From assembly GCF_011764445.1 (NCBI RefSeq), contig NZ_BLPG01000002.1, positions 868,001 through 932,000 on the forward strand: a stretch of 64,000 nt of DNA, given 5' to 3'. Source of the stretch: Phytohabitans rumicis (GTDB taxonomy: Bacteria > Actinomycetota > Actinomycetes > Mycobacteriales > Micromonosporaceae). Positions 31,042 through 54,603 of the stretch are shown piece after piece. The translations under genes and the position numbers were made by a program. Each line of letters begins with the position of its first letter. Within the stretch, counting starts at the first letter, position 1. The notes beneath the pieces were generated by a model. It worked only from the letters and a program-made list of their open reading frames with translations, ran no database searches and was not told the DNA's origin.

Positions 31042-31476
31042 ATGACAACCAGCATCACCGATCTACGCACCGCGGAAGAGGCGGCGCGGGGCGTCGTGAA
31101 GGCGGTCGGAAAGGCTTGGGGAGACAACAACCCGGACGGGTTCGCCGACGCGTACACCGAGGACGCCACCATGATCCTGTCTGGCGACCGGTTCTTCCGG
31201 GGCCGCGAGGTCATCCGGAAGGTGGCGCAGCAACAGTTCAGCTCCGCCCACAAGGGCACCACCCTCCTGCAGAACGTCGTCGACCTGCGGTTCGTCGGGA
31301 CGGACACGGCGGTCATCATCACCGAGGGTGGCGTGCTCGCCCCCGGCGAGACCGAGCCGGCTCCGGACCGGGCCATCCGGGCCACGTGGGTGCTGGCCAA
31401 GAAGCCGGACCAGAAGTGGTACATCGCCGCCTACCAGAACACCCGCAACGCGGACACCCAACTACCGGGCGCCTAG
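31042..31476 (+). CDS. SgcJ/EcaC family (SnoaL-like) protein 1
   Basis: This 144-residue NTF2-like protein resembles the SgcJ/EcaC family (DUF4440/SnoaL fold): WGDNNPDGFADAYTEDATMILSGDRFFRGREVI and ATWVLAKKPDQKWYIAAYQNT. Family members occur in enediyne and polyketide clusters and are annotated as oxidoreductases or cyclases, with poorly known activity. ATG at 31042 after GAGGACC. It is two bases upstream of the LLM oxidoreductase, forming an operon. A second paralogue is at 42797. Confidence 0.8.
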   Translation: MTTSITDLRTAEEAARGVVKAVGKAWGDNNPDGFADAYTEDATMILSGDRFFRGREVIRKVAQQQFSSAHKGTTLLQNVVDLRFVGTDTAVIITEGGVLAPGETEPAPDRAIRATWVLAKKPDQKWYIAAYQNTRNADTQLPGA

Positions 31477-31478
31477 CT

Positions 31479-52025: not shown

Positions 52026-53224
52026 CTCCCCGCCTCGGCGGCCGGGGTCAGCTCCCGCCGGAAGAACGCGCGCACGTCGTCGACCAGCACGTCGGGCCGC
52101 TCCATCGCGGGGAAGTGGCCGCCGCGGTCGTACTCGGTCCACTGCTGGATGTTCGGGAACTCGCGGTCGGCGAAGCGGCGTACCGGCAGCACCACGTCGC
52201 GGCCGAACACCGCGACGCCCAGCGGCACCGGGTTGGCGACCGGGCGGGCGAGCACGTCGCTGACCGGCAGCGTCGCGGCTTCCTCCCGGTAGATCTGGGC
52301 CGAGGAGCCGGCGGTCGCGGTGAACCAGTACAGGCTCACGTTGGTGAGCATCTGGTCGCGGTCCAGCGCCTCCTCGGGCGAGTCGGCGCAGTCGCTCCAC
52401 TCCTTGAACAGATCCACGACCCAGGCCAGCTGGCCGACCGGCGAGTCGGTCAGCGCGTACGCCATCGTCTGCGGCCGGGTGATCTGGACCTTCTGGTAGC
52501 CGGACAGCTCCTCGTTGAAGCGCGCCAGCCGGGCCATCCGCGCCTGGTCGGCCTCGTCCAGCTCGGCCAGCTCCGCCGGGTCGGCGGGCCCGGTCATCAG
52601 CATGTTGATGTGCGCGCCGACGATGTGCTCGGGGTCGACGAAGCCGAGCTCGAGGGCCACCGCCGAGCCGAAGTCGCCGCCCTGCGCGCCGTACCGGTCG
52701 TAGCCGAGCCGGCGCATCACCTCGGCCACCGCCCGCGTCATCCGGGTGACGTTCCAGCCCGTCTCGCGCAGCGGGCCGGTGTACGCGAACCCGGGCAGCG
52801 ACGGGACGACCAGGTGGAACGCGTCGGCCGGGTCGCCGCCGCACGCCCGCGGATCGGTCAGCGGCTTGATCACCTTGACGAACTCCGCGATCGACCCCGG
52901 CCACCCGTGCGCCAGCACCAGCGGCAACGCGTCCGGCTCCGGCGACCGGACGTGCAGGAAGTGCATGGTGACGCCGTCAACGTGCGTGGTGAACTGCGGA
53001 AACTGGTTCAGCTCCGCCTCCGCGGCGCGCCAGTCGTAGCCGGTGCGCCAGTGCTCGGCCAGCTCCCGCAGGTATCCGCCCGGCACGCCGCGGCTCCAGC
53101 CGCCGCCGTACGGCTCGGCCGGCCAGCGGGTCGCCGCGATCCGGTCGCGCAGGTCGTCGACGGCCTCCTGCGGCACGTCGATCCGGAACGGCGTGACGGA
53201 CGTGTCTGTCGACTGTGGATTCAT
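52022..53224 (-). CDS. EHN-type epoxide hydrolase 2
   Basis: This 400-residue paralogue of the enzyme at 46469 has the EHN domain (IDVPQEAVDDLRDRIAATRWP), HGWPGS, Asp184 (GGDFGS) and His370 (RGGHFPAME). ATG at 53224 overlaps the aminotransferase stop (ATGA). Two hydrolases suggest two epoxides or two diastereomeric steps. Confidence 0.9.
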   Translation of the reverse strand: MNPQSTDTSVTPFRIDVPQEAVDDLRDRIAATRWPAEPYGGGWSRGVPGGYLRELAEHWRTGYDWRAAEAELNQFPQFTTHVDGVTMHFLHVRSPEPDALPLVLAHGWPGSIAEFVKVIKPLTDPRACGGDPADAFHLVVPSLPGFAYTGPLRETGWNVTRMTRAVAEVMRRLGYDRYGAQGGDFGSAVALELGFVDPEHIVGAHINMLMTGPADPAELAELDEADQARMARLARFNEELSGYQKVQITRPQTMAYALTDSPVGQLAWVVDLFKEWSDCADSPEEALDRDQMLTNVSLYWFTATAGSSAQIYREEAATLPVSDVLARPVANPVPLGVAVFGRDVVLPVRRFADREFPNIQQWTEYDRGGHFPAMERPDVLVDDVRAFFRRELTPAAEAGR

Positions 53225-54603
53225 CTCGACCTCCCGGCGAGTTCGCCACCGGCCCCGAGCCGGGAGATCACCTCGGCCACCGCCTCGGCGGCCCGGGTGA
53301 CCTGCGGCTGCGAGATGACCAGCGGCGGGGCCATCACGAGCGTGTTGCCGTAGTCGCGCGCCACCACCCGGTGCACGTCGCGCAGCTCGCGGGCCACCGC
53401 GCCGGCCATCAGCGGCTCCCGGGTGCCGCGGTCGGCGACCAGTTCGATGCCCACGGTCGCCCCGGCGATCCGCACCTCACCGACGTGGGGCCGGTCGCCC
53501 AGCGGCGCCAGCGCGGCGCCGAACCACTCCCCCACCGTCGCGGACCGGCCCACCAACTGCTCGCGGTCCACGAGGTCGAGGTTGGCCAGCGCGACCGCGC
53601 ACGCGGTGGCGTGGCCCGAGTACGTGTGCCCGTGGAAGAGGTAGGCGTCCCCACCGGCGACGGTCTCCCCGATCTCGTCGCGCACCAGCACCGCGCCCAA
53701 CGGGGCGTACCCGCTGGTCAGGCCCTTGGCCACGACGGCGATGTCGGCGCGCATGCCGCGCACGGCGGAGTCGAACCAGGCGCCGGTACGGCCGAAGCCG
53801 GTCACCACCTCGTCGGCGATCAGCAGGATGCCGTGGCGGGCCAACAGCTCGCGCACTCGCGGCCAGTAGTCCGCCGGTGGGATGAGGATTCCCGCGCCGC
53901 CCATCACCGGCTCGCCGATCATCGCGGCGATGTTGCCGGCCCCGATCTGGTCGATGGTGCCGGCCAACTCGTCCAGCAGGAAGTCCGTGAGGTCCCGGCC
54001 GGGAGCCAGATCCGGCGCCCGGTAGGGGTGGGCCGGCGACACCTTGGCCACGTGCGGCAGCCCCAGGCCGATCCCCTGGTGCATGCCGGGAAAGCCGGTG
54101 GCGGTGCCGCTGCCGTACGTGGTGCCGTGGTAGGCGAAGTGCCGGGAGATGACCCAGGTCCGGTCGGGTTCGCCGCGGTGGTGATGGTAGAGCCGGGCGA
54201 ACTTGATGGCGGTCTCCACGCCCTCCGAGCCGCCGTTGGTGAAGAACACCCGATCCAGCCCGTCCGGCGCCAGCGCGACCAGGCGCTCGGCGAGCATGAG
54301 GGACTGGTCGTTGGCGAAGATGTCGAAGCCGGTGAAGTACTCCAGCGTGCCCATCTGCCGGGCCGCGGCCTCGGCCAGCTCGGTACGGCCGTGGCCCACC
54401 TGGGCGACCCAGTTGCCGCCGCCCATCACGTCCAGCAGCTCGACGCCACGCGCGTCCCATACCAGGCAGCCGGAGCCACGCACCATCGTCCTGCGTTCGT
54501 GCTGCGCCCCGTTCTGATGGGGGTGCAGCAACACCCGCCGGTCGAGCTCCTCCAGCTCGGCGGCGGACCGGGTCACGGCCGGCGTCTCGTTGACGGTGGT
54601 CAT
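53221..54603 (-). CDS. Class III PLP-dependent aminotransferase
   Basis: This 460-residue enzyme has the fold-type-I class III layout: GSEGVETAIKFAR, the PLP-contacting Asp264 (LIADEV) and Schiff-base Lys293 (VAKGLTSGYAPLG). It transaminates a ketone or aldehyde on the scaffold or a sugar. ATG at 54603 with AGAGGA upstream is preferred to a farther in-frame ATG at 54654. First gene of the five-gene minus-strand operon; divergent from a cyclase gene. Confidence 0.88.
   Translation of the reverse strand: MTTVNETPAVTRSAAELEELDRRVLLHPHQNGAQHERRTMVRGSGCLVWDARGVELLDVMGGGNWVAQVGHGRTELAEAAARQMGTLEYFTGFDIFANDQSLMLAERLVALAPDGLDRVFFTNGGSEGVETAIKFARLYHHHRGEPDRTWVISRHFAYHGTTYGSGTATGFPGMHQGIGLGLPHVAKVSPAHPYRAPDLAPGRDLTDFLLDELAGTIDQIGAGNIAAMIGEPVMGGAGILIPPADYWPRVRELLARHGILLIADEVVTGFGRTGAWFDSAVRGMRADIAVVAKGLTSGYAPLGAVLVRDEIGETVAGGDAYLFHGHTYSGHATACAVALANLDLVDREQLVGRSATVGEWFGAALAPLGDRPHVGEVRIAGATVGIELVADRGTREPLMAGAVARELRDVHRVVARDYGNTLVMAPPLVISQPQVTRAAEAVAEVISRLGAGGELAGRSR

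What the first reader, a model, noticed from the sequence alone, without database searches (positions are those of the whole stretch)
31042..54603. Epoxide-centred tailoring locus with no PKS or NRPS in view
Three FAD epoxidase domains of MonCI type, two EHN epoxide hydrolases, two SgcJ/EcaC proteins, a P450, a GMC oxidase, an acyl-CoA-dehydrogenase-like oxidase and several SDRs occur together. SgcJ and EHN hydrolases are shared with enediyne clusters, while MonCI-type epoxidases mark polyether chemistry; the combination does not match one known class. The product may be a multiply epoxidised, diol-containing, glycosylated metabolite whose scaffold genes lie outside the window.
Basis: partly seen in the sequence, partly recalled or inferred. 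Interest (0 to 1): 0.75.

Follow-up and report, generated by a model that had tools for sequence, protein, structure and literature searches.

The report
Epoxide arm of enediyne gene cluster
These oxidising and epoxide-opening genes are most likely the outer arm of a bacterial gene cluster for a nine-membered enediyne, a known class of DNA-cutting natural product, whose scaffold-building enzyme lies just beyond the window.

Summary
In detail: three MonCI/Lsd18-type flavin epoxidase domains, two epoxide hydrolases, an SgcJ protein, a P450, a GMC oxidase and an acyl-CoA-dehydrogenase-fold flavin hydroxylase lie at 40.5-54.6 kb, a second SgcJ at 31 kb. That the set matches no known class does not hold. 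The missing scaffold PKS is 17 kb past the window: an enediyne cassette (PksE, thioesterase, UnbV-type gene, two DUF1702 genes that pair one-to-one with those of a C-1027 producer), so a predicted nine-membered enediyne. The genome fits Phytohabitans rumicis NBRC 108638, whose enediyne PKS was reported in 2020. The C-1027 producer also carries epoxidase, hydrolase, SgcJ and hydroxylase homologues. In 39 of 49 named genomes with this PksE an epoxidase homologue lies within 90 kb of DUF1702 (about 2.6 expected by chance). Most likely the epoxidases oxidise the polyene or core and the hydrolases open the epoxide to a diol. Unusual: three epoxidase domains from three subclades, two in one gene; frame breaks in several genes; an orthologous tailoring block on another scaffold. 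Glycosylation has little support. Ordinary class, modest novelty.

The parts
31042..31476 (+). SgcJ/EcaC family NTF2-like protein
   Evidence: TIGR02246 98.9 bits, over cut-off; best matches in 12 of 16 compared regions, 31-48% identical
40553..41775 (-). Acyl-CoA-dehydrogenase-fold flavin hydroxylase (XiaF/HsaA-like), split over two frames near 41.2 kb
   Evidence: PF08028 in one frame, PF02771 in the other; PDB XiaF and p-HPA hydroxylase C2; 51-72% identical homologues in enediyne regions; frame break seen in 11 alignment pairs
41828..42634 (-). SDR oxidoreductase; 79% identical to a gene in a Catellatospora tritici cassette SDR-SgcJ-epoxidase-P450
   Evidence: PF13561
42797..43237 (+). SgcJ/EcaC family protein, closest solved relative named SgcJ
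   Evidence: TIGR02246; PDB 4i4k SgcJ, E 3.6e-34
43234..44625 (+). MonCI/Lsd18-type FAD epoxidase
   Evidence: PDB Lsd18/LasC E 4.6e-52 and MonCI; GGSIAG and GDA motifs; a homologue within 90 kb of DUF1702 in 39 of 49 named pksE genomes
44645..45880 (+). Cytochrome P450, CYP154-like
   Evidence: PF00067; PDB CYP154A1 E 6e-105
46469..47635 (-). Epoxide hydrolase 1 (EHN + alpha/beta hydrolase), SgcF type (label recalled)
   Evidence: PF06441/PF00561; PDB 5f4z and 4i19 epoxide hydrolases E 5e-161 and 2e-156; QGGD and RGGHF motifs; 63-64% identical to the hydrolase on the C-1027 producer's pksE contig
47690..50388 (-). Two-domain MonCI-type FAD epoxidase; domain 1 and the start of domain 2 share one frame, the rest of domain 2 lies in another frame (break near 48.8 kb)
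   Evidence: tblastn places; domain 1 is sister to the C-1027 producer's epoxidase, support 100/99; frame break seen in 10 alignment pairs
50422..52016 (-). GMC oxidoreductase, split over two frames near 51.2 kb
   Evidence: PF00732 and PF05199 in adjacent frames; homologues in the C. tritici enediyne arm, in G223 and on own scaffold C1
52022..53224 (-). Epoxide hydrolase 2, SgcF type (label recalled)
   Evidence: PF06441/PF00561; PDB 5f4z E 3e-156
53221..54603 (-). Class III aminotransferase; 54% identical homologue in one other enediyne region (G223)
   Evidence: PF00202

Best explanation
The locus is the oxidative tailoring arm of a nine-membered enediyne gene cluster whose core (window coordinates 78605-101622, scaffold C2:946605-969622) lies right of the window. 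Proposed working: PksE makes a polyene that the E-genes turn into the enediyne core (class knowledge, recalled). The MonCI-type FAD epoxidases place epoxide(s) on the polyene or core. The hydrolases open an epoxide to the vicinal diol that later carries the peripheral groups. The ACAD-fold flavin hydroxylase (perhaps fed by the flavin reductase beside pksE), the P450, the GMC oxidase and the aminotransferase decorate the core or its side groups, and the SgcJ proteins assist a core step. Shown here: the genes, their relatives, and their linkage to enediyne cassettes across genomes. Inferred: substrates, order and every reaction.
For: The enediyne core lies about 15-31 kb past the window end: P450, flavin reductase, thioesterase, a 1920-aa KS-AT-ACP-KR-DH PksE, a 333-aa membrane protein, a UnbV/ASPIC protein and DUF1702, plus a second, broken DUF1702 gene. 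The two DUF1702 genes pair one-to-one with the two of the C-1027 producer (52% against 37%; pieces of the broken one 65 and 58% against 42 and 45%); E2 presence as the nine-membered mark is from PMC5181780 (section 8 read). An epoxidase homologue lies within 60 kb of DUF1702 in 33 of 49 and within 90 kb in 39 of 49 named pksE genomes, against 1.8 and 2.6 expected. The best hydrolase match is within 60 kb in at least 26 of 49. Hydrolase, epoxidase, SgcJ and ACAD gene are neighbours in Nonomuraea thailandensis; ACAD gene, hydrolase, epoxidase, hydrolase with a P450 close by in Dactylosporangium siamense. CB02366 has all four families on its pksE contig. The three epoxidase domains fall in three supported subclades that also hold enediyne-region epoxidases.
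Against: About 24 kb of genes mostly not shared with enediyne regions (54780-78590: ABC transporters, GT2, GH6, GH35, AfsA and others) lie between arm and core, so two neighbouring clusters cannot be excluded. The closest relative of epoxidase 43234-44625 (71%) sits in Catellatospora tritici in a cassette on another contig than its pksE. 10 of 49 genomes have no epoxidase within 90 kb; two of these, S. pacifica CNR114 and A. xylanilytica, have no match at all. Of the closer epoxidase homologues, 35 of 73 lie further than 60 kb or on other contigs. Several arm and core genes are frame-broken in this assembly, so activity is uncertain. No apoprotein gene is near the cluster: one weak partial PF00960 match on the other scaffold.
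Confidence: 0.86

Rival explanations
1. The arm belongs to a separate non-enediyne pathway (for example with the aryl-type PKS set on scaffold C1, or its own small-molecule scaffold) that merely neighbours the enediyne cluster.
For: About 24 kb of mostly unshared genes separate arm and core; the SDR-SgcJ-epoxidase-P450 block has its closest relatives in a C. tritici locus where no PKS was recognised in the 40 kb gene-called (not family-scanned); on own scaffold C1 an epoxidase, ACAD, GMC and three SgcJ genes stand beside a KS, AT-DH-KR-ACP PKS.
Against: Hydrolases, epoxidase, SgcJ and ACAD gene are together and linked to enediyne cassettes in many genomes at similar distances, including a C-1027 producer; the C1 block itself is orthologous to the arm of the C. 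tritici enediyne cluster.
Confidence: 0.1
2. A polyether pathway, as the MonCI-type epoxidases suggest at first sight.
For: Lsd18 and MonCI are the closest solved relatives of the epoxidase.
Against: The only full ketosynthase on scaffold C2 is that of PksE (one other weak partial match); the epoxidases branch with enediyne-region ones (Lsd18 and MonCI were not in that tree); the hydrolases match EHN-type epoxide hydrolases.
Confidence: 0.03
3. The arm is decaying: frame breaks in the ACAD gene, the second epoxidase domain and the GMC gene are true mutations, tolerated because orthologous intact copies exist on scaffold C1. (This can hold together with the best explanation.)
For: These three families have unbroken counterparts at C1:862-866 kb; breaks are seen against several relatives.
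Against: Core genes without a known copy (one DUF1702 gene, the UnbV gene) are broken too; the assembly fits an unpolished PacBio/Canu genome with 96% completeness, where indel errors are expected; EH and SgcJ genes with C1 counterparts are intact.
Confidence: 0.25

Closest known systems
C-1027 cluster (Streptomyces sp. CB02366, verified producer in PMC5181780)
   Same: pksE cassette, DUF1702 pair matching one-to-one, MonCI-type epoxidase (48-50%; domain 1 of the fused gene is its sister), SgcF-type hydrolase (63-64%), SgcJ (48%), ACAD-fold gene (62%)
   Different: a single epoxidase match in the genome against three arm domains here; no homologue of the arm GMC or aminotransferase on its 69 kb contig; apoprotein not found near our cluster. 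Its number of hydrolases was not established.
Phytohabitans flavus enediyne cluster
   Same: closest PksE (78-79%), ACAD-fold gene (69%), SgcJ and epoxidases near the core
   Different: no SgcF-type hydrolase in the 60 kb compared; its arm genes lie on the DUF1702 side of the core rather than the P450 side
Catellatospora tritici enediyne cluster and satellite cassette
   Same: three SgcJ, GMC, ACAD and epoxidase within about 18 kb of pksE are orthologous to own scaffold C1 block (61-79%); satellite SDR-SgcJ-epoxidase-P450 matches window genes 41828-45880 (63-79%)
   Different: in P. rumicis the first set is on another scaffold than pksE and the second is in the arm; in C. tritici the satellite epoxidase and P450 are one reading frame
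MonCI / Lsd18 polyether epoxidases
   Same: same flavoprotein family by sequence
   Different: distinct genomic setting; no modular PKS on this scaffold

Membership tests
Nine-membered enediyne gene cluster | Enediyne PKS cassette (E3, E4, E5, PksE, E10 thioesterase) | tested here: met
   Pfam and DUF1702 search; PksE 62-79% identical (best segment) to 80 named relatives. E5 (333-aa membrane protein) has no over-cut-off family match and is assigned by place and conservation. The E4 (UnbV) gene shows a frame break.
Nine-membered enediyne gene cluster | E2 gene present beside E3 (rule of PMC5181780) | tested here: met
   Two DUF1702 genes, each closest to a different member of the C-1027 producer's pair; the second, at C2:962310-963262, lies in two overlapping frames. 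Which one is named E2 was not resolved. R3 (ten-membered marker) not tested.
Nine-membered enediyne gene cluster | PksE falls in the nine-membered clade | not tested
   No tree of PksE built here; PMC7692728 (passages) reports this for P. rumicis t1pks-1, and the window's genome is assigned to that strain by size, scaffold count and G+C only.
Nine-membered enediyne gene cluster | SgcF-type epoxide hydrolase and SgcJ (recalled as typical) | tested here: met
Chromoprotein enediyne | Apoprotein gene (PF00960) in or near the cluster | tested here: not met
   Only a 43-residue match, 23.1 bits (25.3 with its neighbours in the frame), on scaffold C1:8.87 Mb.
MonCI/Lsd18 epoxidase family | Homology over the whole protein with FAD-binding motif | tested here: met
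   Residues 13-458 align to Lsd18, E 4.6e-52; GGSIAG and GDA motifs. Activity not tested.
Polyether gene cluster | Modular type I PKS with epoxidase and MonB-type cyclase (recalled) | tested here: not met
   PksE has the only full KS on scaffold C2; MonB-type cyclases not searched for.
Two-component flavin hydroxylase (ACAD fold) | Closest to XiaF/HsaA/p-HPA hydroxylase rather than to acyl-CoA dehydrogenases | tested here: met
   only the open C-terminal piece was searched there.

The most novel reading that the evidence does not exclude
MonCI-type flavin epoxidases are the core epoxidases of nine-membered enediynes, acting just before SgcF-type hydrolases. P. rumicis makes a more highly oxygenated core with three such domains (two in one gene, each placing a different epoxide) and two hydrolases, using a pathway split over two chromosome regions (core and arm on C2; an aryl-PKS, an aryl-acid ligase and a second epoxidase/ACAD/GMC/SgcJ set on C1).
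Probability: 0.2. Interest if true: 0.65.

Novelty: new member of a known kind. Interest (0 to 1): 0.42.

Why it matters
The by-product of more general use is that a MonCI-type epoxidase accompanies most of the nine-membered-type cassettes examined (39 of 49 within 90 kb), in several cases next to a hydrolase. That names a testable candidate for the epoxidation step before the hydrolase. Of my seven paper searches, three paired enediyne terms with epoxidase terms (listing 3 of 3, 20 of 25 and 20 of 528 papers). Judging from titles and abstract openings alone, no listed paper assigned this step to such an enzyme. The held library lacks most of the key enediyne papers (one wanted paper was not held), so it may well be in print.

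Tried and rejected
A polyether origin was rejected: no modular PKS on the scaffold, and the epoxidases branch with enediyne-region ones. 'Separate or primary-metabolism genes' is disfavoured by conserved linkage. A chromoprotein type was looked for and not supported. Glycosylation: no sugar-nucleotide pathway family led in the proteins scanned; three GT2-type genes (37543, 59873, 63946) are not shared with the enediyne regions compared. The gene at 77220-78590 was considered as a fourth arm epoxidase; it is distant and its long branch leaves its place unsure. Three paper searches and one look-up gave little.

Limits of the counts. In one search I entered 131 of the 147 epoxidase rows (16 weak or partial ones dropped) and left out 9 weaker DUF1702 rows. 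In one search three genomes whose hydrolase place was not listed, and one without a match, were counted as far. In the sample, two of the 24 other matching genomes (G094, G252) were not given; the grouping into strong pair and single or divergent type was mine, by bit score. One search printed genes 44-115 only. Frame breaks were placed only to about 200 bases and only where a relative's protein was at hand; the numbers given for them are alignment pairs, of which one relative can give more than one. Labels recalled rather than taken from a call: SgcF type, UnbU/E5, E-gene numbering beyond what PMC5181780 states.
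Full report
Setting. The window is scaffold C2:868001-932000 of a 10.71 Mb genome in three contigs. That paper reports PacBio RSII/Canu sequencing and lists t1pks-1 (Prum_101970, KS/AT/KR/DH) as an enediyne PKS of the nine-membered clade. The strain assignment is an inference from these numbers.

The observation. I called genes on the window and 100 kb around it by codon use and scanned many of them with Pfam and NCBIfam. The epoxidase at 43234-44625 aligns over its length to Lsd18 (E 4.6e-52) and over residues 13 to about 350 to MonCI. 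SgcJ is the best solved relative of 42797-43237. Both hydrolases match solved epoxide hydrolases 5f4z and 4i19 with E-values from 6.5e-146 to 5.3e-161 and keep the QGGD and RGGHF motifs. The 'acyl-CoA-dehydrogenase-like oxidase' is nearer to the flavin hydroxylases XiaF, HsaA and p-hydroxyphenylacetate hydroxylase, which as a group use a separate flavin reductase (recalled); one stands near pksE. The P450 is CYP154-like.

The missing scaffold. A ketosynthase search of the whole genome put one full KS on scaffold C2, at 953843-954703 in a 1952-codon frame. The neighbourhood, all on the minus strand, is P450 (window coordinate 78605-79960), flavin reductase, 145-aa thioesterase, PksE of 1920 aa (KS-AT-ACP-KR-DH, 80944-86706), 333-aa membrane protein, UnbV/ASPIC protein and DUF1702 protein. 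A second DUF1702 gene is split over two frames at C2:962310-963262. Each of the two is closest to a different member of the C-1027 producer's DUF1702 pair. PMC5181780 (section 8 read) uses E2 for nine-membered and R3 for ten-membered rings; R3 was not searched. PksE is 62-79% identical (best segment) to 80 named relatives, Phytohabitans flavus being highest.

Do arm and core belong together? I compared all 150 called genes with the first set and looked at genes 44-115 against the second. Shared with enediyne regions are the two SgcJ genes, the ACAD-fold gene, the epoxidases, the P450, both hydrolases, the GMC oxidase (only in G223, C. tritici and own C1), the aminotransferase (54% in G223, 35% in one other), and most genes of the core from 78605 to 101622. 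Genes 54780-78590 are mostly not shared. In CB02366 the epoxidase (48-50%), hydrolase (63-64%), SgcJ (48%) and ACAD-fold gene (62%) lie on the pksE contig. In N. thailandensis hydrolase, epoxidase, SgcJ and ACAD gene are neighbours; in D. siamense two hydrolases flank the epoxidase, with ACAD gene and P450 close by (three regions looked at, the third, M. matsumotoense, has the epoxidase near the core but none of the others in the 20 kb read).

Counts. In 49 genomes with this PksE, an epoxidase homologue lies within 60 kb of DUF1702 in 33 and within 90 kb in 39; random placement would give 1.8 and 2.6. Of homologues at 44% identity or more, 38 of 73 are within 60 kb; of those below, 1 of 58. 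The best hydrolase match is within 60 kb in at least 26 of 49. Against: 10 of 49 have no epoxidase within 90 kb, and the family is common elsewhere (35 of 73 of the closer homologues lie further than 60 kb or on other contigs).

Three different epoxidases. A maximum-likelihood tree of 23 sequences puts domain 1 of the double gene beside the C-1027 producer's epoxidase (100/99), domain 2 with own scaffold C1 and C. tritici enediyne-arm epoxidases (100/98), and the 43234 gene with a C. tritici satellite cassette (100/100), next to four other enediyne-region epoxidases (94/93). The domains are thus not recent duplicates of one another and may serve different alkenes; this last point is inference. 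Rows were tblastn pieces of at least 300 residues, not whole proteins.

A second block. At C1:862-868 kb the same genome has an epoxidase, an ACAD gene, a GMC gene and three SgcJ genes in the order (turned round, with one extra gene there) found beside pksE in C. tritici (61-79% identity), next to a KS, AT-DH-KR-ACP PKS in two frames and a 2,3-dihydroxybenzoate-ligase-like enzyme below that model's cut-off. PMC10951976 (passages) describes a like pair (iterative PKS MdpB, ligase MdpB2) making the aryl group of maduropeptin. A two-locus enediyne pathway is therefore possible. The PKS itself has only 30-44% matches in the enediyne regions compared, best in G143, and the ligase one closer match (62%, M. 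chaiyaphumensis region).

Frame breaks. Comparing 836 relatives' proteins with the region shows breaks near window coordinates 41.2, 48.8 and 51.2 kb (ACAD gene, epoxidase domain 2, GMC gene) and, in the core, near 89.2, 92.4 and 94.7 kb (UnbV gene, a small gene, the second DUF1702 gene). The sign near 44.6 kb in the same output is an ordinary gene boundary, seen through the C. tritici epoxidase-P450 single frame. The assembly method makes indel errors the likelier cause, but true decay is open.

How it most likely works. By class knowledge the cassette gives a polyene and then the core. The inference here is that the MonCI-type enzymes supply the epoxide that SgcF-type hydrolases open to a diol; the remaining oxidases and the aminotransferase modify the core or side groups. 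None of these reactions was tested. Verdict: a new member of a known kind, with a useful general hint about core epoxidation.

Noticed in passing
Own scaffold C1:862-875 kb (L063, L064): Second tailoring block (epoxidase, ACAD-fold gene, GMC, three SgcJ) beside a KS, AT-DH-KR-ACP PKS in two frames and an aryl-acid ligase; orthologous to the arm of the C. tritici enediyne cluster.
   Followed up: partly
L193 15211-17718 (Catellatospora tritici contig C30): MonCI-type epoxidase and P450 appear in a single 835-aa reading frame, next to SgcJ and SDR genes matching window 41828-45880, with no PKS recognised in the gene-call listing (by size and start) of the 40 kb read.
   Followed up: partly
window 47690-50388: Two MonCI-type epoxidase domains in tandem in one gene (domain 1 and the start of domain 2 in one frame), from two different subclades.
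   Followed up: partly
window coordinates 54780-78590 (partly beyond the window): Mostly unshared stretch between arm and core with ABC transporters, GT2-type genes, an ATP-grasp-like protein (below cut-off), GH6 and GH35 matches, a ScbA/BarX gamma-butyrolactone gene and a distant FAD epoxidase-like gene; perhaps a separate cluster.
   Followed up: partly
C2:957-963 kb (window coordinates 89.2-94.7 kb): Core enediyne genes (UnbV type, second DUF1702 gene) are also frame-broken in this assembly.
   Followed up: partly
G223:C1:4.36-4.44 Mb (L102-L105): An enediyne region with a strong DUF1702 pair, SgcJ, SgcF-type hydrolase, ACAD gene and GMC but no MonCI-type epoxidase match in the genome: a useful test case for another route to the epoxide.
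   Followed up: no
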